DNA from: an uncultured Clostridia bacterium
GTDB taxonomy: Bacteria > Bacillota > Clostridia > Christensenellales > Pumilibacteraceae
Assembly (NCBI GenBank): GCA_947178255.1
Contig: CAMWXP010000014.1
Coordinates: 1 to 35,673, forward strand
Length of the DNA stretch: 35,673 nucleotides
Reading direction: 5' to 3'
Of this stretch, positions 2,920-24,136 are shown in pieces (within the stretch, counting starts at the first letter, position 1; each line of letters begins with the position of its first letter). A model generated the notes under the pieces. The model did not search any database. It saw only the letters and a program-made list of their open reading frames with translations, and was not told where the DNA came from. The position numbers were made by a program, and so were the translations under genes.

Positions 2920-2948
2920 TTGACAAATGCAGTTGCGTGCGGTATAAT
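2920..2948 (+). promoter_or_regulatory. Sigma-A promoter giving a leaderless transcript
   Basis: TTGACA at 2920-2925 and TATAAT at 2943-2948 have a 17-base spacer, both perfect consensus. The ATG at 2955 is only 6 bases after the -10 box, so the expected transcription start is the A of the start codon. Confidence 0.85.
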
Positions 2949-2954
2949 ACTATT

Positions 2955-4238
2955 ATGAAATTTGAACGGCAAAAGCGCAACGGATATATTATGCCCAAGC
3001 GGTATACGCGCATGTACATGGCTGACGGTCGGCGCGCACCGCAGGTAAAGCGACCTATCGGCAGGGCGGTGTTTATTCTTGCCGCAGTTGCGTGCGGATT
3101 GCTTATGCCGTTATTGCTGATGAACGATCTACGTACCGACCCGCAAATAGCCGAGTGGTGGACTACGCACATCGAAGCGGGGTGGGAGCGCGTTATGGGC
3201 ACGCTCACTTCGTGGTTGCCGTTTTCGGTAATGGAGTTCTTTATCGTTTGCCTTATCGGGCTGGGGATTTTCTTTTACGTGCGGCTTATTATCAACCTCG
3301 GCAGAGCGCGGTTCAAGCGCATACTTACCGGTGCGCTGTCCGTATGCGTGGGCGTAATTTACTTGCTTAACCTGTACATGGTGAGCATGGCGTTTGCGTA
3401 TTACCGCGCGGAAATGCCTATTCCGCAGTCGCAAACCAAATACGACGCGGAGAGCGTAAAGCCTGTAATCGAGTACTTTTTGTCCGACTATAACAAGCTG
3501 TCCGAAACGCTGCCGCGCGACAAAAACGGTTGCGTGGAATGCCCGTACACATTTCCCGAGCTTGCGGAGCGGATAAAGGTGGAGTACGCCAAGTTGACCG
3601 ATCCGTATTTTAATCAATATACGCCGACAGCCAAGCCGATAGTAAACAGCTGGTTTATGTCGCAAATGCTTATAACGGGCATGACCTTTTTGCCGACGGG
3701 TGAGGCGAACGTCAACAACGCCGCACCGCCCACCACGCGTACAATTACGCTTGCGCACGAGCTGGCGCACGCCAAGGGCGTGTTCCGCGAGGGTGACGCC
3801 AATCTGCTGGCGCGGTACGTATTGATATCGTCGGACGACGATTATTTGCGGTACTGCGGATATTATTACGCGTTTGACAATCTTTTGGAGGCGTTTATCC
3901 TTACCGAGGATATGCAGTCCTACCGTTCATTTTCGGCGCGAATAAGCGGTAAAGTGCGCACCGAGCGGTGGTATGCCAGCGACTACTGGAATTCGCAGTT
4001 GGATTTGATAGGGCAGATAGCCGAGTTTTTCAACAACTGGTATTTGGAGTCCAACGGCGCGACCAACGGCACAGGCAGTTATGAAAACGGCAATCAAAGC
4101 ACGGTGGTAACGCCCAGCGATCCCATAACCGGCGAACCTGTGCGCGACCCGGTAACGCAAAAGCCGGTGCGAATAATCCATTATTCTCAAGTGCAAAAAA
4201 TGTTCTTTGCCGTTTACGAGCAGCGAACGGAAGGATAA
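2955..4238 (+). CDS. DUF3810-type membrane metalloprotease candidate
   Basis: This protein of about 427 residues has a basic N-terminus, three membrane spans (roughly 37-56, 90-112 and 123-145 from this start) and a large domain with the zinc-protease motif HELAH (His268, Glu269, His272). Downstream YYYAFDNLLEAF may supply a third ligand, though I cannot assign it. Layout and motif match the DUF3810 family known from Firmicutes and Bacteroidetes, whose substrate is unknown. The C-terminus has a Gly/Asn/Thr-rich linker and a tail with the pattern DPxTGxPVRDPVT. An upstream ATG at 2937 overlaps the promoter and is excluded. ATG 2955 would be leaderless; ATG 2991 is an alternative with only a weak ribosome site. 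It is a single-gene unit ending in a terminator. Family assignment is likely; protease activity is inferred from the motif. Confidence 0.75.
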   Translation: MKFERQKRNGYIMPKRYTRMYMADGRRAPQVKRPIGRAVFILAAVACGLLMPLLLMNDLRTDPQIAEWWTTHIEAGWERVMGTLTSWLPFSVMEFFIVCLIGLGIFFYVRLIINLGRARFKRILTGALSVCVGVIYLLNLYMVSMAFAYYRAEMPIPQSQTKYDAESVKPVIEYFLSDYNKLSETLPRDKNGCVECPYTFPELAERIKVEYAKLTDPYFNQYTPTAKPIVNSWFMSQMLITGMTFLPTGEANVNNAAPPTTRTITLAHELAHAKGVFREGDANLLARYVLISSDDDYLRYCGYYYAFDNLLEAFILTEDMQSYRSFSARISGKVRTERWYASDYWNSQLDLIGQIAEFFNNWYLESNGATNGTGSYENGNQSTVVTPSDPITGEPVRDPVTQKPVRIIHYSQVQKMFFAVYEQRTEG

Positions 4239-4986: not shown

Positions 4987-6492
4987 TTAAGACGCGGTTT
5001 TGCGTTTGTTTTTGCGAAACAGCGGTAGGCGCCTTTTGCGTTTTTTGCTAACCGTCATTTCAAAGTCTACCGCGCCGAATATGACGGCTGCGAGCGCTGA
5101 AAAGCACACGCCGCCAATGCCCGCCACTATTATGGGCAGCACCGTTCCCGGAATTATCGAGTGCACGTATTTCGTGAACAGCCACGCGGGGTAGGCGGCG
5201 GCAAGACAAATAAAAAGCGGTTTAAAGAATTTCAGTTTAAAGCCGGTGCGACGCTTAATATCTATCACGTCCAGCACCGACGACAAAATCAAACTAAGCC
5301 CGAACGCGAGTATAAACACGTCCATATCGAAGCGGGAGTAGAACGCGAAGCAAATAACGTACATCGTTACCGCGCCGATAAGATAGTTTATAAGCGATTT
5401 CTTTTCCAAATCGAGGGAGTTGAGCATTGACGAGGCAATATTCTCAAACGCAAGCGGAAGCAGCAGCCACGCCGATTTTTTTAAGAATATGCCGGCGTCG
5501 GTATTGTTGTAAATAAAAATGCCTAGCGGTTCGCCGAGCGCCATATAGGCGGGCAGCACTATCGCCGCGATTATTACCGAAAACGACAGCGCATTCTCTA
5601 TTTGGCGGCACATGCTCTTTTTGTCGCCCGAGGCGTATGATTCGGACAGGGTAGGAATCATGACAAAAGCCAGCGAGCCTACCACCGTTATCGGTAGGTA
5701 CAGCAGCGGTAACGCCATTCCCACGCACGACCCGAATACGTACATAGACTGTTCGGAATTAAGTCCGCTCGACATCAACAAAAACGGCATAGCGATTGCT
5801 ATAATATAGTTGTTTATGCTGGAAGTGGTGCGCGACAGAGTGATGGGCACTGACGTTGCTATAAGCGGCTTAAAATGCGTTTTCGGGCTTTTAAGCTTGC
5901 GCTTGCCGCAAAAGTAGAACAATGCGACGGCAGCCGCCGACACTGCGCAAGCCACCGTCATAGACGCGGACACTGCCGTCGTTTTGTCGGAGAACAGCGA
6001 AAACAGAACAACGCAGCCGATTATGCGTGCGACTTGTTCTATCAGCTCGACTGCGCTGACCGACATAAAGCGTTTTTCGCCCCACAGCACGCCGCGGAAC
6101 GCCGAGTACACGCCCGAAAATACCAGTGCGGGCAGCATTACTATAACAAGCGTCATAGACTGCCGTTCGGCAAACAGCGAGCCGATGGGCTTTTGGAATG
6201 TGACTACCAAAAGGCAAACTATAAGCGCCGTGGCAAGCTCAAATATCAGCGCCGCCGAACATACGCCGCCGCTTTGCTCCTTGTTTGTAGCAGTCTGCTT
6301 GGACACAACGAGCGGTATGCCGGAGGTTAGCAGCGTTATCAGCACAAAAAAGAATGACAGCGCGACCGAATAAATACCCATTCCTACCGCGCCTATCTCG
6401 CGCGACAGATAGATTTTGAACAAAAAGCCGAGCGTGCGTTCCGCAAAGGTGAATGCCGTCATCGTCATTACTGCTTTGGTCATGGAATTCAT
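4987..6492 (-). CDS. SpoVB/MurJ-like polysaccharide or lipid II flippase
   Basis: This 501-residue polytopic protein has 12-14 hydrophobic segments. It belongs to the MOP exporter superfamily that flips undecaprenyl-linked sugars, and in sporulating Firmicutes SpoVB works in spore cortex synthesis. The opening TAFTFAERTLGFLFKIYLSR and the segment GAVGMGIYSVALSFFF followed by SGIPLVVSK are the characteristic SpoVB-subgroup pattern. The C-terminus is strongly basic (KKRKRR, FRKNKRK). No Shine-Dalgarno precedes the ATG at 6492 or the second ATG at 6483. A weak -10 (TAAGAT, minus strand 6499-6504) lies 6 bases before the start, so this too may be leaderless. It is divergent from the lipoprotein pair at 6598. 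Whether it acts in sporulation, lipid II or polysaccharide export cannot be told from sequence alone. Confidence 0.8.
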   Translation of the reverse strand: MNSMTKAVMTMTAFTFAERTLGFLFKIYLSREIGAVGMGIYSVALSFFFVLITLLTSGIPLVVSKQTATNKEQSGGVCSAALIFELATALIVCLLVVTFQKPIGSLFAERQSMTLVIVMLPALVFSGVYSAFRGVLWGEKRFMSVSAVELIEQVARIIGCVVLFSLFSDKTTAVSASMTVACAVSAAAVALFYFCGKRKLKSPKTHFKPLIATSVPITLSRTTSSINNYIIAIAMPFLLMSSGLNSEQSMYVFGSCVGMALPLLYLPITVVGSLAFVMIPTLSESYASGDKKSMCRQIENALSFSVIIAAIVLPAYMALGEPLGIFIYNNTDAGIFLKKSAWLLLPLAFENIASSMLNSLDLEKKSLINYLIGAVTMYVICFAFYSRFDMDVFILAFGLSLILSSVLDVIDIKRRTGFKLKFFKPLFICLAAAYPAWLFTKYVHSIIPGTVLPIIVAGIGGVCFSALAAVIFGAVDFEMTVSKKRKRRLPLFRKNKRKTAS

Positions 6493-6562: not shown

Positions 6563-6591
6563 TTGCTTTTGTTACAATTTAATGATATAAT
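6563..6591 (+). promoter_or_regulatory. Promoter of the transglutaminase-like lipoprotein pair
   Basis: TTGCTT (6563-6568) and TATAAT (6586-6591) are 17 bases apart. The GTG at 6598 lies 6 bases past the -10 box, so the predicted transcript starts on the start codon. Confidence 0.75.
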
Positions 6592-6597
6592 ATATTT

Positions 6598-9033
6598 GTG
6601 GGAACAGTGCAAAAAATCGGAAAGAATATTTTTCGCATAGCGCTTACGACGGCGGTGACGCTTTTTGCGGCGCTTTTAGTCGGCTGTTCCGAAAAAGATG
6701 TTAACATAGTTTTACTGCGCACAGAGCTTTCGCTGAGTGTGGGCGAGAGTCGAAGCCTGTTGCCTTACGTTAATTTTTCGCCCGCGACAAGCGGCGGAAC
6801 GGTTACTCTTAACACCGATTCGGATTGCGTTTCAATAGACGGCACTACGGTAGTTGCCGTCAAGGCAGGCGCGGCAGAGGTGACCATTTCCGCGTACGGC
6901 AAAACGGCGGTGATGAGAATAAACGTAAACTACCGCGCCGTGACGGACTTTACGGTCGCTACGGAAAACAACATACAAACGGCAAGCGACGGCGAGTTTA
7001 AGACTGTTGTTTTGTCGGCGAAATTCGAGGGCGCTGCCGACCCGCAAACGGCTGCACGGTGGCGGGTAAGCGACGGCACGGAATATACAGGAAACCGCTT
7101 TGAGTACACGCCAAACGGCTACGGTGTGTATACCGTAACGGCGACCGTCGGCAATATTGCAAAAAGCTGCGAAATAAAGGTGTATAGACCGACCGAGGTG
7201 ACGGTGCGGCATGCGAGTTTGGATGGCGTTACGGCGTACTCGACCGTCACGTTTACCGCACGCGAGATGGTGAACTCGCTCAATCCGCGCTCGGTATACG
7301 AGTGGCGTGTGGATGACGAGCCTATGGGTAATACCGCCATGTTCGATTTGGTTCCGACGTCCGGGCGGCATAATATTGCCTTGTATGTAAACGGCGCACA
7401 AAAGCAAATAGACGGAAAAAACGAGTTAACGCTAGACGTGGCAAGCGATACCTATGCCGACTGCAAAGTAGAGTTTGACGACGCGCAAGGTGTATATGTT
7501 CGTTACGCTAACGGTCGCAAGGTTATGTATATTTGCATTATCGACCCCGAAGGCAAGCGAAGAACATTCGACGTTACCGACGCTCAGTATTCGCATTTAT
7601 TTACCGACGGTAGGTTTAGGGCGACTGAGTATATTACGTTGTGCGCGCCCGACCCCAAAGCTTACACTATAATCATAGGAATGGACGGCGATAGGTGCGA
7701 GTTTGATTTTGTTCAGCTCGATGCGGACGCTCAAGAATATCTCGATAACAAGGTGTTTTGCCGCAATTCGTTTATTTCGAGCGAAGGCGAGGCAGAGCAA
7801 TACGTGCGCGAGCTGTTTGCAACAGGGGCTCAAAACGCGCGGTGCTATGTTGCGACTGATGTGGAACGCACCATGCAGGTAATTACAGCGCAGGCGCAAA
7901 GGCTGGGACTTAACGCTACGGCGGATGCCAGCGGCAACGTTATTTCACTGAATTTCGCGCAGTACTCCAACAGACCCGAAAGGTATGAAACTGCGTCAAA
8001 ACGCACGTCATACGCCGAGCTTCCGCACATAGAATATAACGTCGAAAACCGACGTGCCAACGACTACGTTTTTGCGTCCGACAGGGCGGCGGGAAGTATA
8101 TCGGTGTCCGGCAGCGAGCAGCTGCTTATAGCGATATCAAACGAACTGAAACCGTTAACGCAAAGCGGAGACGTTGCGCATACCGTTTACCGCTCGGCCA
8201 AAACAGCACTGTTGCGCATAATCGGCAAAGACTACACGCAAGAGAAAAAGATTCATACTATATACGACTGGTTGCAGTGGTTTACCGTAAATTCGTCCGT
8301 CGCAAGCAATTCCTCCGGCAGGTTTTTGGAGGGCGTATTTGCAAGCGAATCTACCGGGTCTGGATATGCGGTAAACAGCGAGGGTGCCGCCAAGGCGTTT
8401 GCGCTGCTTTGCGGTATAGAAGGCATAGAGTGTGTTATCTGTTACGGCGAAGGGTACGGATATTACAATAAAGTCAAGCTTAGCGGATTGTGGTACAACG
8501 TGGACGTATTCGGCGGCAAGACGATGATCGAGGGGACGACAGGTTCAACCGGTAATGTTTGGTTTACCTCGCACCGCGGTTTACTTATAACGGACGACGA
8601 TATGAAACGGCTTGGCTGCAATGTAAACGACGGCTACGAGGCATTTGATACGGTGAATTCCAGGTATATGCAAAAGTACGACTATGACGGCGTGTATATG
8701 GATAACTATATAGACAAAACGGAAGCTGAGTATGAGTTTGTCCGTGCGGTAGTATTTAATGCGTTTAATGCCGTTACGGTAGGCAACACGCGCATACCGT
8801 TTGTGGGCGGCGAGGTAATCATTTACAACAACACATACGGCGTGGAGCTTGCTTGCGCCGCCGACATGACGGAAGCGGAAGTGATAGAAATATCCGGGTT
8901 TGTAAACAGAGCGATAGACGAATATGCAAGCGAAGTGCTTAAAGCGACGTTTGCGAGCAGGCGCACTATAATTGCGGACGGCGTAATTTGCGCGGTAGCC
9001 GTATCGCCGAGAGCGGTACAATCGGAGGGATAA
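6598..9033 (+). CDS. Lipoprotein with Ig-like domains and an inactive transglutaminase-like domain
   Basis: This 811-residue protein has a lipoprotein signal: hydrophobic stretch then LLVGC with lipidation at Cys30, so it should be anchored outside the membrane. A bacterial Ig-like (BIG2) domain follows (about 38-105: LSVGESRSL ... VKAGAAEVTISA), then PKD-like beta domains to about 290. A transglutaminase-like region lies near 550-640 and aligns with that of the next gene. There the catalytic Cys is Ser594 (NSEGAAKAF) and the His is Gly621 (YGYYNKV), while the Asp remains (Asp636, YNVDVF). It therefore looks like a pseudoenzyme, perhaps a binding or scaffolding partner. Start: GTG at 6598, a second GTG at 6607 is possible; neither has a ribosome site. 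It overlaps the next gene by one base (TAATG). Confidence 0.8.
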   Translation: MGTVQKIGKNIFRIALTTAVTLFAALLVGCSEKDVNIVLLRTELSLSVGESRSLLPYVNFSPATSGGTVTLNTDSDCVSIDGTTVVAVKAGAAEVTISAYGKTAVMRINVNYRAVTDFTVATENNIQTASDGEFKTVVLSAKFEGAADPQTAARWRVSDGTEYTGNRFEYTPNGYGVYTVTATVGNIAKSCEIKVYRPTEVTVRHASLDGVTAYSTVTFTAREMVNSLNPRSVYEWRVDDEPMGNTAMFDLVPTSGRHNIALYVNGAQKQIDGKNELTLDVASDTYADCKVEFDDAQGVYVRYANGRKVMYICIIDPEGKRRTFDVTDAQYSHLFTDGRFRATEYITLCAPDPKAYTIIIGMDGDRCEFDFVQLDADAQEYLDNKVFCRNSFISSEGEAEQYVRELFATGAQNARCYVATDVERTMQVITAQAQRLGLNATADASGNVISLNFAQYSNRPERYETASKRTSYAELPHIEYNVENRRANDYVFASDRAAGSISVSGSEQLLIAISNELKPLTQSGDVAHTVYRSAKTALLRIIGKDYTQEKKIHTIYDWLQWFTVNSSVASNSSGRFLEGVFASESTGSGYAVNSEGAAKAFALLCGIEGIECVICYGEGYGYYNKVKLSGLWYNVDVFGGKTMIEGTTGSTGNVWFTSHRGLLITDDDMKRLGCNVNDGYEAFDTVNSRYMQKYDYDGVYMDNYIDKTEAEYEFVRAVVFNAFNAVTVGNTRIPFVGGEVIIYNNTYGVELACAADMTEAEVIEISGFVNRAIDEYASEVLKATFASRRTIIADGVICAVAVSPRAVQSEG

Positions 9034-11618
9034 TGCAAATGGTTGGTGCAAAAAGAATTTCGAGACATATACGTGCGGCTGTTGCCGTAATGCTTGTAAC
9101 GGTAGTTGCGGCAATGATGCTCGGCTGCTCGTTTATGAACGAGTTATTCAAGCCGGACGTCATCAAGTTTACGCAACGCGAGCTCGGCCTTAGTGTGGGC
9201 GAAGCGTACGATATTACAAGCATTCTCGAAACAAACACGACCGTGTATCGGTTAAAGACGTCGGACGAAGCGGTCGTCGCTGTGGAAAAAGGCAGTAATA
9301 CCGTAATAAAAGCGGAAGCCGAGGGCGAAGCGCGTATAACTGCGTACACAAGCTCGGCAAGCGCAAGCATATTAGTCACCGTATCCGAAAAGCAGGAGGA
9401 TTCGCTTAGCATAACGGCAAGCGGCGAGCTTGTGCAAACGCTCGGCAATACTTCCGAGGTGTCGTTTACGCCGACGGCAAAAGGCGAGCCGAGCAAAAGC
9501 GAAAGCGTGTATTGGTACGTAAACGATAGGCTTAACCAAATGCTGGCCTTATCGACCGACTTCAAATTTACGCCGAGCGAGGCAGGCGAGTATACCGTTT
9601 TGGCTAAGTGCGGTAGCTTTGCTTCCAATGCAATAACGGTGCGAGTGTACAACGTTGTCACCGCCGAAGTGAATGTAAGCGGCGAGCTTGAACAAAGCGA
9701 ACCGTTTGACAATTTGGTTTTTTCGGTGGACGTAAGCGGTGCGGACGAAAATTATTTTCAGTTTTTCGAGGACGACAAAGCGCTGTACGAGGGCACCGAC
9801 AGCTCGTACACGTATACGCCGACAGCGGGGCGGCACACGCTTACAGTCAAGGTAAACGGTCAAATCGAATATTCGGAGAAAGCTTTATTCCGTGGCGCAA
9901 TGTTGCCCACGGTAAGCGGGCTTAAGTTTGACAATCTGTACCCGCATGCTTATCTCGTGTACGACGAAGCGTTAGACAACAATGTAAAGGTGGAAATAAC
10001 GCACCCGCAGGGCGGCGCGGTGGAATATTCGCAAAACGATACGCAATATGCTGCGTATTTCGACGAAAACGGCTTCGACGTCGGACCGTTTATCGATTTG
10101 TGCGCTACCGGCGCTAATCTGCAAGAATATAAGTTTCGCGTAAAATCTTTGGGTGACGGCGACGTTATAACCGAAAGCGAGTATACCGATTTTGTATCGT
10201 TCACGCAGTTGCCGGCAACTGCCAAGCAGTATGTGACCAACGTTTTGCCGTGCGGCGATCTTTACGTAACATCGAATATCGAGTACGTGCGTATCGCCGA
10301 GTATTATATATATTTCAGAAAGAAAGAAGCAAATACGAAAGTGTCGTTCGATTGCTATATCGGCTATAACAGATCGGGCAGCGCAAAGGATTTGTGGGAC
10401 AACGCCTTTCCGATAGCCGCGACCAGCGGAAGCTATTCGGCTATAAGAGTAAGCGATTCGGGCGCCGTAATGCATACCGAGTTTACCGTCAGCACGGTAA
10501 ACAATCCGTCGACGCAAACCGACGAGTCGGCAAAGCGGTCGGCACAGCTTCACGCAATACTGCCTCATATCAACATGGACGCGGCAAAAAACCGTCCGTC
10601 AAACCATGAGTTTGCAATAGACAAAATTAAGGAGCGCACGGCAGAAGTTACGTATTCCGATGAATTGTATTTGGCGGCGCAAAACGGAGTGAGACCGATA
10701 CCCAAGGCGGGTTCGACGGCGCAAGTCGTTTACGAGCAAGCGCGAAGCGTGTTGCGCAGTATTTGTACCGACGATATGACAGACGTGCAAAAGGCGCATG
10801 CCATTTACGATTGGATTATGTGGCACGTAACATACGATACACCGGCAACCTTGATTACGAGCGGTAGCGAAAGCTATTCGGCGTACTATTTGGAAGGAGT
10901 GTTCGGCGACGGAAAAACCGAGCTGGGCGGCGTTGCGTACAATGCCAACTCGGTGTGCGACGGCATGAGCAAGGCGTACTCGCTGATGTGCAATATAGAG
11001 GGTATACCGTGTGTGCGCGTCGTGGGCAGAGCGGATGCGGATAAGGATATCAACAGTGCGGGCGGACACGCGTGGAACAAGGTATACGTCAACGGTGCGT
11101 GGTATACGGTGGACTGCACTTGGGGCGATTCGCACGTGACGCTAAATCTTGACGGCGTTGAAGATAGGTACGAGCTGGGGATGCACAGCTATCTGTTCTT
11201 GACGGACGCGCAAACTTTTTCCACGCACTTCGAGCCGTATAGGTACGAGGAAAATACGACTTTACGCTACGCGCCGCAAACGGCAAAAACGCCAATAAAC
11301 GTGTTTGTCGATATGACGGTGAACGGCGTGGCGATAAATTGTTATATAGCCAAAAACGAAAAACAAGCCGATAGATTAAAAGAGATTGCTACAAATTTTG
11401 CAAGGGCGTACCAAAAGAACAAAACGATATCCGTGCCGCTAAGCGGAGAGTATACCGTTGGCTATCAAGCGATTGAGGTATGCGCCGAGGACGGCTTTAC
11501 TGTTTCCGACCGTGAAATTGGAAACACAGTTACGACGGCTGTAAAAGCCGTTAGCCGTTCTGCTACGGTGCGGACGCTGACTCTTGAAAATTCGATTTTG
11601 ATATTGATAAAAGAATAA
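9033..11618 (+). CDS. Lipoprotein with Ig-like domains and an active-type transglutaminase domain
   Basis: This 861-residue paralogue of the preceding gene starts at the ATG overlapping its stop, with GGAGGG 2-3 bases upstream; an ATG at 9039 fits the spacing better and is possible. The signal peptide ends in AMMLGC, lipidated Cys32. A BIG2-like domain (about 47-115, starting LGLSVGEAYDI) and PKD-like beta domains follow. The transglutaminase/protease-like domain has the full triad: Cys642 (NSVCDGMSKAY), His679 (GGHAWNKV) and Asp694 (YTVDCTWGD). Upstream YDWIMWHVTYD is the conserved helix of this superfamily. Such exported proteins are thought to act as cysteine peptidases or crosslinkers on the envelope; the substrate is unknown. 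Co-translation with the inactive paralogue suggests that the two work together. Confidence 0.85.
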   Translation: MQMVGAKRISRHIRAAVAVMLVTVVAAMMLGCSFMNELFKPDVIKFTQRELGLSVGEAYDITSILETNTTVYRLKTSDEAVVAVEKGSNTVIKAEAEGEARITAYTSSASASILVTVSEKQEDSLSITASGELVQTLGNTSEVSFTPTAKGEPSKSESVYWYVNDRLNQMLALSTDFKFTPSEAGEYTVLAKCGSFASNAITVRVYNVVTAEVNVSGELEQSEPFDNLVFSVDVSGADENYFQFFEDDKALYEGTDSSYTYTPTAGRHTLTVKVNGQIEYSEKALFRGAMLPTVSGLKFDNLYPHAYLVYDEALDNNVKVEITHPQGGAVEYSQNDTQYAAYFDENGFDVGPFIDLCATGANLQEYKFRVKSLGDGDVITESEYTDFVSFTQLPATAKQYVTNVLPCGDLYVTSNIEYVRIAEYYIYFRKKEANTKVSFDCYIGYNRSGSAKDLWDNAFPIAATSGSYSAIRVSDSGAVMHTEFTVSTVNNPSTQTDESAKRSAQLHAILPHINMDAAKNRPSNHEFAIDKIKERTAEVTYSDELYLAAQNGVRPIPKAGSTAQVVYEQARSVLRSICTDDMTDVQKAHAIYDWIMWHVTYDTPATLITSGSESYSAYYLEGVFGDGKTELGGVAYNANSVCDGMSKAYSLMCNIEGIPCVRVVGRADADKDINSAGGHAWNKVYVNGAWYTVDCTWGDSHVTLNLDGVEDRYELGMHSYLFLTDAQTFSTHFEPYRYEENTTLRYAPQTAKTPINVFVDMTVNGVAINCYIAKNEKQADRLKEIATNFARAYQKNKTISVPLSGEYTVGYQAIEVCAEDGFTVSDREIGNTVTTAVKAVSRSATVRTLTLENSILILIKE

Positions 11619-11673: not shown

Positions 11674-12429
11674 TTACAGCAACGAAAACTTTTTAAAGAA
11701 GTCTTGTTGCGGCGCGCGCCATGCAAGCTCGTCGTGTGCCGCCGTGTTAGTCATGGTAAGGTCGAGGTTTACCGCGCCGTGCTTTCTAAGCTCGTCGGTA
11801 AGGATGTAGCAGTCGGTCACAAATGCTTGCTGTTCTATTTTCGTCAACTCGGGCTTGTCGGTAGTTATTTCGTTGCCGCCCGTGTAAACCTTGTAGTACG
11901 CATCTGTATCGAACGACGCGGTTTTAAAAAACTCGGTAAAAGCGTCGGGGCTTACAAACAGCGGGGTGGAAAACATGCCGTACGCCTTGACGCGCGGGTT
12001 TTTCCGCGCTGCAAAGTACAGAGTGGCAAGCCCGCCGAAGGACGAGCCGAGCATACCGTAAAATTTAAACCCGAACCGCTTATCGAGGTAGGGAATAATA
12101 ATTTCTTCCAAATACGCCATGTATTCGTCCGCTTTTCCGCCGACCTGCTTTATGCCGTACTTTTCGGCGTTCTCGACTGGGAATGGCACGTAATCGAATT
12201 CGCGGGTGACGGTGCTGTCTATGCCGATGATTGCGGTGTTTTTTATGTTTTCCGCTTTAAGTGCGTTGAGCGCACGCCAGCTCTTTTTGTATGAGGCGTC
12301 CTCGTCGTAGAACACGTTTTGACCGTCGTGCATTATTATTGCGCGGTCGGCCTTTTTGGGCGCATATATGCGCACCGTTCGCGCAAATCCTCCCTTTGAT
12401 AAAACAGCTATTTCGTACTTGCGTTTCAT
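11674..12429 (-). CDS. Putative esterase of the alpha/beta-hydrolase esterase-D/Fes type
   Basis: This 251-residue cytoplasmic hydrolase has an N-terminal beta region containing HDGQNVFYDEDASY (about 34-47), typical of the Esterase (PF00756) family, which includes siderophore esterases and antigen-85-like enzymes. The nucleophile elbow is GSSFGGLA and the likely catalytic His is in AAHDELAWR near the C-terminus. No signal peptide is present. Start: ATG at 12429 with AGGTGG 5 bases upstream on the minus strand; a GTG at 12438 in frame overlaps that site and is less likely. It is a single gene with its own promoter, divergent from cca and converging on the lipoprotein pair. The substrate is unknown. 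Confidence 0.75.
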   Translation of the reverse strand: MKRKYEIAVLSKGGFARTVRIYAPKKADRAIIMHDGQNVFYDEDASYKKSWRALNALKAENIKNTAIIGIDSTVTREFDYVPFPVENAEKYGIKQVGGKADEYMAYLEEIIIPYLDKRFGFKFYGMLGSSFGGLATLYFAARKNPRVKAYGMFSTPLFVSPDAFTEFFKTASFDTDAYYKVYTGGNEITTDKPELTKIEQQAFVTDCYILTDELRKHGAVNLDLTMTNTAAHDELAWRAPQQDFFKKFSLL

Positions 12430-12456
12430 TTTTACCACCTAATCGAATTTATGATG

Positions 12457-12501: not shown

Positions 12502-12530
12502 TTGATTTTATTATTTATATATGCTAAACT
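12502..12530 (+). promoter_or_regulatory. Probable promoter of cca
   Basis: TTGATT (12502-12507) and TAAACT (12525-12530) are 17 bases apart. The start would be near 12537, leaving a short leader with a weak CGGA before the ATG at 12559. Confidence 0.55.
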
Positions 12531-12558
12531 CTTATCACCAACAAACACGGATATTAAT

Positions 12559-13926
12559 ATGAAAATCAATCTTGACGAAAAAAGCGCCAAATTTATAAGC
12601 TCGCTTGGCGATAACGTTTACGTTGTGGGCGGGTATGTTCGCAACAGTTTGTGCGGGTACAAATGTACGGATATAGATATAGCCGGACCTATGCCCGCGC
12701 TAGCTTTGTCGTTGCCGCCGCGCACTACGATGACAATGGTCAATCACCGCATGGGCACGGCGCAAATAATATACGACGGAGTTAAGTACGAATACACGCC
12801 GTTTAGAGTGGAGGAGTACGGCGAGGGCGGCGAACACACGCCTATTCGCGTCAGCTTTACCACCGATCTTTACGCGGACGCGTCGCGGCGGGATTTTTGC
12901 TGTAACGCGATTTATTACGACGTTAAGCGCGACGAGATAATCGACCCGCTTGGCGGCGTGCGCGACGTCGAAATGAAGGTTTTGCGCGGCTGTAACAAGC
13001 ATGTGTTCGAGTCGGACGGGTTGCGGCTACTGCGCCTTGTGCGGCTTGCTGCGGAGCTGGACTTTAAGATAGAGGGCGAAACGGCGCGCGCGGCAAAGGC
13101 GATGAGCAATAATCTTGCCGACATAACCGCCGAGCGCAAACGCGTGGAGCTGGACAAAATTTTGCATGCCGATCTTGTGAACGGCGCTAAAAACGCGCAG
13201 TACCGCGGACTCAGATTGTTGAAGCAGTTGGATTTGTGGAAAAACTTAATCCCCGAATTAGTCGAGTGCGACGGTATGGCTCAGCCCGAGCAGTACCACA
13301 AGTACGACGTTTTGGAGCATACATTCCGCACCGTGCTTGCGGCACAGCCGTTGCATAACGTACGGCTTGCGGCGCTGTTGCACGATGTAGGCAAGGCATA
13401 TTGCTTTAAACAGTTCGGCAATTTTTACGGTCACGAAAAAAGCTCGGCGATTGCCGCGCGAATAATATTGAACAGACTGCGTTATCCCAACGACGTTATA
13501 GATCAAGTTGTGCGGCTGTGCGGTGCGCATATGTACGATATGCGCGGCGACGCTCGCGAGGCCAAAATACGTGTGTTTGTGTCCAAAAACTATGATATTT
13601 TGGATAAGCTGACGGCGCTTATCCGCGCGGACAAAATAGCTACCGGCATGGTCACGCAGGAGGAAGCTGCGGCACCGCACAGGTTCGAGCTGGTACGCGA
13701 AAAGATGATACAAGAGGGTGCGCCCATACTTAAAAAATCGCTCAAAATATCGGGGCGTGATTTAGTGGATATGGGCTTCGAAAGCGAGGCTATATCGGCG
13801 GCGCTCGAAGCGATGTGGAAGGAATGTATAATAAATCCCAAAAACAACAACGTTGAATTTTTGCAAAAAATGGCGCAAAGACTTCCCAAAACGCCTGCAG
13901 AGCTGCCTAAGAAAAAACAGGATTAG
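12559..13926 (+). CDS. cca: CCA tRNA nucleotidyltransferase, class II with HD domain
   Basis: This 455-residue enzyme adds or repairs the 3' CCA end of tRNAs from CTP and ATP. The nucleotidyltransferase head has VVGGYVRNSL (about 22-31) and the metal-binding DxD in CTDIDIA (Asp38, Asp40). RRDFCCNAI and IDPLGGVRD are further class II hallmarks, followed by the nucleobase-selecting region with ESDGLRLLRLVRLA. A C-terminal HD phosphohydrolase domain carries LLHDVGKA (His275, Asp276) and GHEKSS, as in many Clostridial members. An in-frame ATG at 12502 lies in the promoter, so the start at 12559 is preferred; only a weak ribosome site precedes it. The gene stands just upstream of the VanW protein gene (45-base gap). 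Confidence 0.93.
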   Translation: MKINLDEKSAKFISSLGDNVYVVGGYVRNSLCGYKCTDIDIAGPMPALALSLPPRTTMTMVNHRMGTAQIIYDGVKYEYTPFRVEEYGEGGEHTPIRVSFTTDLYADASRRDFCCNAIYYDVKRDEIIDPLGGVRDVEMKVLRGCNKHVFESDGLRLLRLVRLAAELDFKIEGETARAAKAMSNNLADITAERKRVELDKILHADLVNGAKNAQYRGLRLLKQLDLWKNLIPELVECDGMAQPEQYHKYDVLEHTFRTVLAAQPLHNVRLAALLHDVGKAYCFKQFGNFYGHEKSSAIAARIILNRLRYPNDVIDQVVRLCGAHMYDMRGDAREAKIRVFVSKNYDILDKLTALIRADKIATGMVTQEEAAAPHRFELVREKMIQEGAPILKKSLKISGRDLVDMGFESEAISAALEAMWKECIINPKNNNVEFLQKMAQRLPKTPAELPKKKQD

Positions 13927-15419: not shown

Positions 15420-16523
15420 ATGAATTCTTTGGCTTTTATCAGTTCGTTTAATTGGTACGGATTGCTTATGGCAACCGGTATAATGTGCGGCGTTATCGGC
15501 TGCTACTTTGCCGCAAAGCATCACGGCTTGGAAGGCGACGTTATAATCGACATGATTATAATATGCTTGCCGCTTGCAATAATCGGCGCACGTATTTACC
15601 ACGTAGTGTTCGACGTAATGGCGGGCAATCCTTGGACGTTCGCGGAGTTTTGCGGTTTTTCGGACGGAGAGTTTAAGGGGCTTGCCGGGCTTGCTATATA
15701 CGGCGGTCTTTTCGGCTCCATTGCGGGCGCGGTCATTTTCCACTTTTGGAAGAACAGAAAAAAACTGCCCGAAAATAAGCGCGTATCGTTTTGGCAAATC
15801 GCCGACGTAGGCTTTGCGTTTATCATGCTCGGTCAGGTAATCGCACGCTGGGGCAACTTTGCCAACGGCGAATGCTACGGCGAGGTCGTTACCAATCCGG
15901 CATTCCAGTGGGCGCCGCTCAGCATGAAGGTGGGCGATGAATGGCGCACGTCAATATGGTTCTATGAATCGCTGTGGAACTTTTTCGGGTTCTTTGTACT
16001 GCTGTACTTGTACTTGGGTCGGCACAAAAGCTTTGACGGTTTCGTTTTTGCCGTATACGGCATATGTTATGGTATAGGCAGGGCGTGGATAGAAGCGATC
16101 CGCGTCAATGACGTATTGTATTTGGGCGGCATGCGCGTAAGCGTGTTTGTAAGCGTGCTGTTTATCGTTATGGGTGTGGCTATTATAGCAACGCACATAA
16201 TCCGCGCCAAGCGTGCCGGCAAAAAGGTATTTATATTTGTCGACCAAAAAAAGCTGAACGACGATTACTTCGGCTACGAAAAGACAAAGCTCGCTCATCC
16301 TATGCCTGATATCGTGTTCTTTAAGGACAGAAAAAAGATAAGGAACAAGGAAGAAATAATCGTCGACGAAAGCGGCGTTGCCATCAAGGTTAAAAACGAT
16401 GAAACGGACGATAGCAATAATACTGCTCGTCCGCAGTCGCAAAAGGCTAATAACCAAGTAGATACAAAAGAGGTCATATCTGACGACGCGGAGGATGCGT
16501 ATGAAGACAAGTGGGACGACTGA
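15420..16523 (+). CDS. lgt: Prolipoprotein diacylglyceryl transferase with a long acidic tail
   Basis: This membrane enzyme transfers diacylglycerol from phosphatidylglycerol to the lipobox cysteine of prolipoproteins, the first step of lipoprotein maturation. It has 367 residues against about 260-300 for most Lgt. About seven membrane spans fill residues 8-265. Diagnostic motifs are AIYGGLFGSIAG, the Lgt signature ARWGNFANGECYGE (normally R-x-G-N-F-x-N-x-E) and the helix with WFYESLWN. After the last span a hydrophilic tail of about 100 residues follows, with many Lys, Asp and Glu and ending DAYEDKWDD; such a cytoplasmic tail is not part of the catalytic core. No ribosome site precedes the ATG. 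Its end overlaps the next gene by 23 bases. The lipoproteins at 6598 and 9033 would be substrates. Confidence 0.92.
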   Translation: MNSLAFISSFNWYGLLMATGIMCGVIGCYFAAKHHGLEGDVIIDMIIICLPLAIIGARIYHVVFDVMAGNPWTFAEFCGFSDGEFKGLAGLAIYGGLFGSIAGAVIFHFWKNRKKLPENKRVSFWQIADVGFAFIMLGQVIARWGNFANGECYGEVVTNPAFQWAPLSMKVGDEWRTSIWFYESLWNFFGFFVLLYLYLGRHKSFDGFVFAVYGICYGIGRAWIEAIRVNDVLYLGGMRVSVFVSVLFIVMGVAIIATHIIRAKRAGKKVFIFVDQKKLNDDYFGYEKTKLAHPMPDIVFFKDRKKIRNKEEIIVDESGVAIKVKNDETDDSNNTARPQSQKANNQVDTKEVISDDAEDAYEDKWDD

Positions 16524-23434: not shown

Positions 23435-24136
23435 CTAATCCTTGTTGGTTGTTTCGTCATCTTTGGCGGAAACCGCGTCATGATTTTCGCCGTCGGTTTT
23501 GGGTTTATACAATATAAGTTTTATGATAAGTACCACCACAACTGTTACCGCAATTATAAAAAATGCTAGCGTGATATAGTTGACGTAGTCCTTGAACAAA
23601 AACGATATAAGCGTGATTATCGCACACGCAACGGCGTTGCCGATAACGACGCCGATAAGCGATTTTACAAACCCGATTTTCAGTATGGACGCGACTGCGC
23701 TGCCCGTCCACACTCCTGTAAGCGGCAGGGGAACGGCTACAAACAGCGCCGTGCCGCCCATCTTTTTCAGATCGCTTTTTGTTATAAACGGCTTTTTAGT
23801 CCCGTCGCTTATATGTTCGTCTTGAACGGTATCGGCAAGCGAGCGCGATTTTTTTTCAAACTTGTCGTACAAAAACTTGCCGATTTTGGAAAAAAACTTT
23901 GTTCTTGACAGCGCGTTTATGGTGGGGATAAAAACTATCAGCAGTATGGGCGCAATCAACGACGAGCCCAAAAACGCCCAGCCGAACGCTTCCATAGGCG
24001 AAAGTCCCATGCTTATGCCGAACGGTATGGCAAACCGCGCTTCGGCTATCGGTATGATAGACAGCAACAATACGCTAAGCGGCGCGCCGAGCGCGTTATT
24101 CATCGACTCGGCTATACCTTGCACAAATTCACTCAT
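23435..24136 (-). CDS. Small-multidrug-export-type membrane protein (COG2426-like)
   Basis: This 233-residue protein has about six membrane spans. The segment LSIIPIAEARFAIPFGISMGLSP, with the E-A-R-x-A-I-P-F/Y-G element, is the hallmark of the putative small multi-drug export family (PF06695), which is related to DedA proteins. A charged cytoplasmic loop (about 90-120) and VPLPLTGVWTGSAVA, also typical, come next. The C-terminal 35 residues are charged. No transport substrate is known. Promoter TTGACA/TATAAT leads almost directly into the ATG (8-base gap) without ribosome site. Its tight coupling to glmS suggests an envelope-linked role, for example in lipid carrier traffic; that is inference. 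Confidence 0.8.
   Translation of the reverse strand: MSEFVQGIAESMNNALGAPLSVLLLSIIPIAEARFAIPFGISMGLSPMEAFGWAFLGSSLIAPILLIVFIPTINALSRTKFFSKIGKFLYDKFEKKSRSLADTVQDEHISDGTKKPFITKSDLKKMGGTALFVAVPLPLTGVWTGSAVASILKIGFVKSLIGVVIGNAVACAIITLISFLFKDYVNYITLAFFIIAVTVVVVLIIKLILYKPKTDGENHDAVSAKDDETTNKD

What the first reader, a model, noticed from the sequence alone, without database searches (positions are those of the whole stretch)
6598..11618. Tandem lipoprotein pair: active-type and dead transglutaminase
Aligned motifs show Cys642/His679/Asp694 in the second protein against Ser594/Gly621/Asp636 in the first. Both keep the lipobox, Ig-like domains and overall layout, and they overlap by one base. A conserved enzyme-pseudoenzyme pair on the cell surface suggests a complex or a decoy receptor.
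Basis: partly seen in the sequence, partly recalled or inferred. Interest (0 to 1): 0.55.

Follow-up and report, generated by a model that had tools for sequence, protein, structure and literature searches.

The report
Paired surface enzyme and dead twin
In a genus of gut Clostridia, a membrane-anchored enzyme of the transglutaminase kind is always encoded together with a sister protein that has lost the catalytic residues but is kept intact by selection, which suggests that the dead copy has become a helper, binder or regulator.

Summary
ORF1 (6598-9033, P1) and ORF2 (9033-11618, P2) are paralogous lipoproteins (27% identity, E 2e-46) overlapping by one base. P2 has the Cys642/His679/Asp694 triad; P1 has Ser594/Gly621/Asp636. 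P2 keeps Cys 20/20 and His 19/20. Single homologues in 33 related genomes all have Cys-His-Asp and often sit in the same chromosomal slot. P1 is under purifying selection (dN/dS about 0.2, dead domain included), is predicted to fold as Ig domains plus a module like S. pyogenes TglA, and its distances covary with P2's beyond neighbouring genes. P1 owns the promoter, with a conserved leaderless start; P2 follows, coupled. Best reading: a fixed enzyme-pseudoenzyme pair in which P1 binds P2 or its substrate; contact and substrate are inferred. The decoy idea has no evidence. Inactive bacterial transglutaminases are known (RloB, toxin anchors), so this is a new variant: a conserved tandem active/dead lipoprotein pair. 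Whether the duplication arose in the genus stem or earlier is unresolved.

The parts
6563..6591 (+). promoter of the pair: TTGCTT (6563-6568), 17 bp, TATAAT (6586-6591), 6 bp before the GTG start
   Evidence: sequence; the same layout in 17 of 18 P1 genes with a complete 5' region and in 18 of 28 single-copy homologues
6598..9033 (+). P1: lipoprotein with an inactive (pseudo-) transglutaminase domain, 811 aa, GTG start at the predicted transcription start (leaderless)
6598..6687 (+). P1 signal peptide and lipobox (LVGC, lipid-bearing Cys30)
6688..7719 (+). P1 residues 31-374: four Ig/PKD-like domains
   Evidence: AlphaFold2 model; Big_2 and Ig matches Z 8-10.8; weak Pfam PKD below cut-off
7720..9006 (+). 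P1 residues 375-803: TglA-like module holding the pseudo-transglutaminase domain
   Evidence: 9crn Z 17.2, 298 residues, 4.1 A, model range 378-803
8377..8379 (+). Ser594 codon, in place of the catalytic Cys
8458..8460 (+). Gly621 codon, in place of the catalytic His
8503..8505 (+). Asp636 codon, the retained triad residue
   Evidence: 20 of 20
9024..9035 (+). junction: GGAGGG ribosome site, TAA (9031-9033) overlapping ATG (9033-9035); translational coupling
9033..11618 (+). P2: lipoprotein with active-type transglutaminase domain, 861 aa
9126..9128 (+). P2 lipobox Cys32
10227..11615 (+). P2 residues 399-861: TglA-like module
   Evidence: 9crn Z 19.9, 317 residues, 4.0 A
10956..10958 (+). catalytic Cys642
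11067..11069 (+). catalytic His679
11112..11114 (+). catalytic Asp694
4987..6492 (-). context: SpoVB/MurJ-like flippase homologue, divergent; marks the ancestral slot
   Evidence: TIGR02900 197.7 bits, below cut-off 372.3
12502..13926 (+). context: CCA-adding-enzyme homologue, other border of the ancestral slot
15420..16523 (+). context: Lgt, prolipoprotein diacylglyceryl transferase
   Evidence: TIGR00544 145.5 bits, cut-off 118.9

Best explanation
A duplicated transglutaminase-like lipoprotein gene has become a fixed enzyme-pseudoenzyme pair. Shown by sequence: one leaderless-type promoter lies before P1; P2 follows with a coupled start; both have lipoprotein signals; P2 keeps a complete Cys-His-Asp triad; P1 keeps the predicted fold and purifying selection but not the catalytic Cys and His. 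Inferred: both stand on Ig-domain stalks on the outer face of the membrane. P1 binds either P2 or P2's substrate (a wall peptide or the flexible end of a surface protein), so that P2 forms or cleaves an amide bond only when and where P1 has placed or switched it on. P1 would thus be a scaffold or activator subunit, not a decoy.
For: Pair present and adjacent in 20 of 20 genomes of the genus. P1 lacks Cys in 20/20 while P2 keeps Cys 20/20 and His 19/20. P1 dN/dS 0.17-0.24 in 9 species pairs, like P2's 0.13-0.21 in 8; P1 pseudo-active region 0.12-0.22 in 4 pairs. P1 model pLDDT 87.3, pTM 0.80, matches TglA at Z 17.2. P1-P2 distances covary after removing flippase (partial r 0.386, p 0.0005, n 16) or CCA-enzyme distances (0.585, p 0.0005, n 15); eight control comparisons with neighbours give -0.40 to 0.23, none p<0.05. 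Gap between P1 stop and first possible P2 start -47 to +38 nt in 20/20. Loss of constraint includes the catalytic neighbourhood: P2-invariant D643, G678, H679, W681, T696 are relaxed in P1. Precedent for a non-catalytic transglutaminase-like domain acting through a partner: yeast Cyk3, which binds and stimulates Chs2 (PMC4758748, abstract and passages read).
Against: No physical contact shown; a heterodimer could not be modelled here. Covariation can arise from shared surface pressure or from paralogues sharing rate shifts. P1-invariant positions relaxed in P2 (E223, W236, A342, R496, D684, K693, G748, A772, Y776) are scattered along the sequence, not one clear interface. P1 has also changed around the pocket, so substrate binding by the old groove is uncertain. 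In one genome (G018, 84% complete) P2 is broken by a deletion and frame change between Cys and His while P1 reads on. P2's activity and substrate are unknown.
Confidence: 0.5

Rival explanations
1. P1 is an independent surface binding protein: the dead domain was repurposed to hold a peptide or glycan (adhesion, wall anchoring), and its genetic link to P2 is only a relic of tandem duplication.
For: Inactive transglutaminase domains next to signal peptides and sometimes bacterial Ig domains were proposed to anchor proteins to the surface by binding peptides (PMC3482391, passages read). P1 diverges fast (mean distance 1.115 against 0.281 for the flippase neighbour), as surface binders do.
Against: Tight adjacency kept in 20 of 20 genomes and P1-P2 covariation are not expected of unrelated functions.
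Confidence: 0.27
2. P1 has a new catalytic chemistry using other residues, for example the Ser at the Cys position with Asp636.
For: Asp kept in 20 of 20 and Ser in 16 of 20; active-site migration is known in the papain-like superfamily (PMC10318531, passages read).
Against: The Ser is Asp, Arg or Gly in 4 of 20 and the His place is Gly, Tyr, Phe, Arg or Asn in 19 of 20, so no common new dyad exists at these places. Ser/Asp there (18 of 20) fits a helix N-cap (helix 594-607; inference).
Confidence: 0.07
3. P1 is a decoy receptor, soaking up a host or competitor ligand or inhibitor of P2.
For: Surface location and a retained fold are compatible.
Against: No ligand, host factor or inhibitor gene was seen; nothing distinguishes this from ordinary binding.
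Confidence: 0.05
4. P1 is a decaying duplicate or an assembly artefact.
For: Catalytic residues lost; long stem branch (1.37).
Against: Intact open frame, promoter, lipobox and predicted fold; dN/dS about 0.2; seen in 20 separate assemblies including a cultured strain, A. muris CLA-AA-M11.
Confidence: 0.01

Closest known systems
Streptococcus pyogenes TglA (PDB 9crn)
   Same: Near whole-length structural match of the C-terminal module of both P1 (Z 17.2, 298 residues) and P2 (Z 19.9, 317 residues); transglutaminase-like domain.
   Different: The solved chain is about 361 residues and the match includes no Ig stalk. No paper on TglA was found in the library, so its function is not used here.
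[quoted passage not shown] aeruginosa)
   Same: A bacterial, envelope-located, catalytically dead transglutaminase domain in an operon (PMC12239564, passages read).
   Different: Seven membrane helices and partners RloA protease and RloC ATP-grasp; P1 has one signal peptide, Ig domains and an active paralogue as neighbour.
Inactive transglutaminase domains of polymorphic toxins
   Same: Dead domain after a signal peptide, sometimes beside bacterial Ig domains; proposed to bind peptides (PMC3482391, passages read).
   Different: Those are N-terminal parts of RHS-repeat toxin proteins; P1 has no RHS repeats or toxin domain in Pfam, and its dead domain is C-terminal to the Ig domains.
Yeast Cyk3
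   Same: Transglutaminase-like domain without the catalytic Cys that works by binding an enzyme (PMC4758748, abstract and passages read).
   Different: Cyk3 keeps His and Asp and needs them for its function; P1 has lost His too. Eukaryotic, intracellular; no active paralogue partner in the passages read.
Trypanosome enzyme-prozyme pairs (AdoMetDC/prozyme)
   Same: Dead paralogue kept beside the enzyme (PMC6221367, passages read).
   Different: Heterodimer and activation are reported there, not shown here; other enzyme family.
NCBIfam MAG6410 family transglutaminase-related lipoprotein
   Same: P2 matches it over the transglutaminase part (56.5 bits).
   Different: Far below the curated cut-off of 450 bits; P1 does not match.

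Membership tests
Transglutaminase-like superfamily, active enzyme (PF01841): P2 | Pfam gathering score reached | tested here: met
   P2 48.8 bits against 23.
Transglutaminase-like superfamily, active enzyme (PF01841): P2 | Cys-His-Asp triad | tested here: met
   P2: Cys 20/20, His 19/20, Asp 20/20, the G018 Asp on a second ORF.
Transglutaminase-like superfamily, active enzyme (PF01841): P2 | transamidation, deamidation or proteolysis | not testable with these tools
   No assay.
Transglutaminase-like superfamily, active enzyme (PF01841): P1 | Cys-His-Asp triad | tested here: not met
   P1: Cys 0/20, His 1/20, Asp 20/20. Related by descent and predicted fold, not as an enzyme. P0001 has no Pfam hit at E<=1.
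Bacterial lipoprotein | signal peptide with lipobox ending in Cys | tested here: met
   Lipobox-like motif in all 17 P1 with complete N-terminus (G009 marginal, GFAC) and 20 of 20 P2; Lgt gene at 15420-16523.
TglA-like module | near whole-length structural match to 9crn | tested here: met
   Z 17.2 (P1) and 19.9 (P2) to 9crn; next rows about 11.
Cyk3-type pseudo-transglutaminase | lacks Cys, keeps His and Asp | tested here: not met
   His also lost in 19 of 20 P1.
RloB-type 7TM inactive transglutaminase | seven transmembrane helices | tested here: not met
   Model shows one N-terminal hydrophobic helix then strand-rich domains; no such Pfam hit.
Polymorphic-toxin inactive transglutaminase | RHS repeats and a C-terminal toxin domain | tested here: not met
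   None in the Pfam scan of P0001 nor among the families listed for 16 P1 orthologues.
Enzyme-prozyme pair | dead paralogue binds the enzyme and changes its activity | not testable with these tools
   Only indirect: coupling, covariation.

The most novel reading that the evidence does not exclude
P1 is an obligate surface prozyme: a dead transglutaminase lipoprotein that must bind P2 (or hand it its substrate) for surface amide-bond chemistry. This would be a bacterial, extracytoplasmic enzyme-prozyme system fixed across a whole gut genus, with a built-in order of synthesis (leaderless P1 first, coupled P2 second).
Probability: 0.33. Interest if true: 0.7.

Novelty: new variant of a known kind. 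Interest (0 to 1): 0.5.

Why it matters
Bacterial pseudoenzymes are hard to recognise because a single dead copy looks like decay. Here 20 species-level genomes, synteny, selection and a live sister gene in the same operon show that the dead copy is maintained, and the genus has a cultured member (A. muris CLA-AA-M11) in which the two genes could be removed one at a time. If P1 governs P2, it gives a simple model for how surface transglutaminase-like enzymes are aimed or switched.

Tried and rejected
Recent decay: rejected by conservation of the loss and dN/dS. New common catalytic dyad in P1: no second residue replaces His consistently. Pseudo-copies elsewhere in the order: 25 loci were given to a motif scan, which found the site in 13, all reading Cys; the other 12 gave no motif hit and were not read by hand. 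P2 relatives in viral contigs: none.

Timing of the duplication: the 73-row tree joined P1 and P2 against the singles (99, drawn with a midpoint root) and the 82-row tree with 12 order-level outgroup rows did so at 90, not starred; but a 40-row LG+G4 tree put P1 outside P2+singles at 73/54, and holding P1+P2 together was not rejected (p-AU 0.358). Unresolved. The AU test on the 82-row tree did not finish.

Foldseek whole-model hits were mostly Ig-domain matches with large rmsd, so only the VIA-align rows are used; families not listed there are not excluded.

Literature: 'Anaerocaecibacter' gave one taxonomy list (listing only).

Rows dropped: 3 of the 36 non-genus genomes with a match (G026, G043, G071: partial matches) were not fetched; G010_2, G010b_2 and G018_2b were left out of the trees, and G017_1, G065_s and the short C52 homologue out of the rooted ones; the 40-row tree used 10 of 20 genus genomes, 14 singles and 6 outgroup rows.

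Full report
1. The observation. They are paralogues (27% identity, E 2e-46). The named residues are correct: Cys642/His679/Asp694 in P2, Ser594/Gly621/Asp636 in P1. Pfam sees the transglutaminase domain in P2 (48.8 bits, cut-off 23) and not in P0001, though 3 of 16 P1 orthologues match it at E<=0.1.

2. Who carries it. The named scan places the window in or next to the genus Anaerocaecibacter (Pumilibacteraceae): the contig of A. muris CLA-AA-M11 has the length of the contig that holds the pair in G001 (400106 bases); most other full-length hits are unnamed Clostridia metagenome genomes. The genus name for the window rests on that match. All 20 held genomes of the genus carry P1, and all 20 have P2 next to it on the same strand. 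Of the 54 other genomes of the family, 36 have a match; I fetched 33 of those 36, and each shows one such ORF, not a pair.

3. Is the loss conserved? Yes. In P1 the Cys place is Ser 16, Asp 2, Arg 1, Gly 1. The His place, counted back from the invariant Asn, is Gly 8, Tyr 7, Asn 2, Phe 1, Arg 1, His 1 (G017, whose Cys is Gly). The Asp is kept in 20 of 20. MAFFT shows the eight Gly rows as gaps, so that place is alignment-dependent. P2 keeps Cys in 20 and His in 19 of 20; in G018 the stretch between Cys and His is deleted and the frame changes. All 33 single copies read Cys-His-Asp.

4. Decay or function? P1 dN/dS is 0.17-0.24 over 9 species pairs and P2's 0.13-0.21 over 8; the P1 pseudo-active region gives 0.12-0.22 over 4 pairs (several dS values exceed 1 and are rough). 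Lipobox-like motifs are present in all 17 P1 with a complete N-terminus, one marginal (G009), and in 20 P2. P1 is selected, not decaying. Constraint has shifted: positions invariant in P2 and relaxed in P1 include catalytic-site neighbours (D643, G678, H679, W681, T696), while P1 has its own invariant residues scattered over Ig, TglA-like and C-terminal parts (17 P1 and 14 P2 rows).

5. Structure. AlphaFold2 models (P1 pLDDT 87.3, pTM 0.80; P2 84.1, 0.63) show a signal helix, a run of strand-rich Ig-like domains (four by my reading of the strand pattern) and a C-terminal module. In the second look by VIA-align, that module matches S. pyogenes TglA (9crn) over nearly its whole length, Z 17.2 for P1 and 19.9 for P2. 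The dead domain still folds in prediction. Ser or Asp (18 of 20) at the start of helix 594-607 fits an N-cap (inference).

6. Origin. P1 and P2 are each monophyletic (100, starred). Of 32 single-copy loci examined, 20 share at least one border of the slot, the divergent flippase homologue or the downstream CCA-enzyme homologue, and 11 share both. This fits duplication in place. Whether it happened in the genus stem or earlier with loss elsewhere is open: the two larger trees favour P1+P2 together, the 40-row tree does not, and the test does not decide (p-AU 0.358).

7. Expression. Before P1 lies TTGCTT-17-TATAAT-6-GTG, so the predicted transcript begins at the start codon. The layout recurs in 17 of 18 P1 genes with a complete 5' region, spacing 6 or 7, in 18 of 28 single copies (stricter -10 match, spacing 5-8), and in 3 of 26 other window genes. 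P1 thus holds the promoter type of the single copies. P2 has GGAGGG and a start overlapping P1's stop; across the genus the first possible P2 start lies -47 to +38 nt from P1's stop. Inference: P2 is mostly made after P1 from the same message.

8. Do they work together? P1-P2 distances stay correlated after removing the species signal: partial r 0.386 (given the flippase, n 16) and 0.585 (given the CCA enzyme, n 15), both p 0.0005; eight control comparisons with three neighbours lie between -0.40 and 0.23, none significant. This fits interaction but can also reflect shared pressure on paralogues.

9. Mechanism. Most likely, P1 is a non-catalytic partner that holds P2 or its substrate on the outer face of the membrane, and P2 makes or cuts an amide bond. 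Shown by sequence or prediction: anatomy, conservation, adjacency, selection. Inferred: contact, activation, substrate. Precedents: Cyk3 (PMC4758748), prozymes (PMC6221367), inactive bacterial transglutaminases in RloB (PMC12239564; another such gene in PMC12096838) and in toxin anchors (PMC3482391); human inactive members EPB42 and FBXO21 are mentioned in PMC10318531. For these papers I read found passages (some within abstracts), not the whole texts.

10. Verdict. A real, well-supported and modestly novel finding: a fixed tandem active/dead transglutaminase lipoprotein pair. The partner role is the best reading at about even odds; the decoy idea is unsupported.

Noticed in passing
6563-6600, also before genes 2937-4238, 15420-16523 and 23435-24136 (minus strand): Leaderless-type promoters (-10 box 5-8 nt before a start codon) recur in this lineage: 17 of 18 P1 genes, 18 of 28 single-copy homologues, 3 of 26 other window genes.
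   Followed up: partly
11674-12438 (-): An esterase-like gene sits between P2 and the CCA enzyme in the genus but was not found by tblastn (E<=1e-8) in the 32 single-copy loci of other genera.
   Followed up: no
L133:1662-4219: In G018 the active copy P2 is broken by a deletion and frame change between Cys and His; may be real or an assembly fault. Intact copies exist in other genomes of the genus.
   Followed up: partly
own genome C52 (L116:1076-2347), C7 (L118), C26 (L117): Three further transglutaminase-domain genes in the genome; the C52 one is a short homologue with an intact triad, and similar short ones recur across the genus.
   Followed up: partly
L149:7130-12627: An Oscillospiraceae contig carries four transglutaminase-like ORFs of 420-480 aa in a row on one strand.
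   Followed up: no
6598-11618: P1 and P2 diverge much faster than the adjacent flippase gene (mean distances 1.115 and 0.783 against 0.281), as exposed surface proteins often do.
   Followed up: partly
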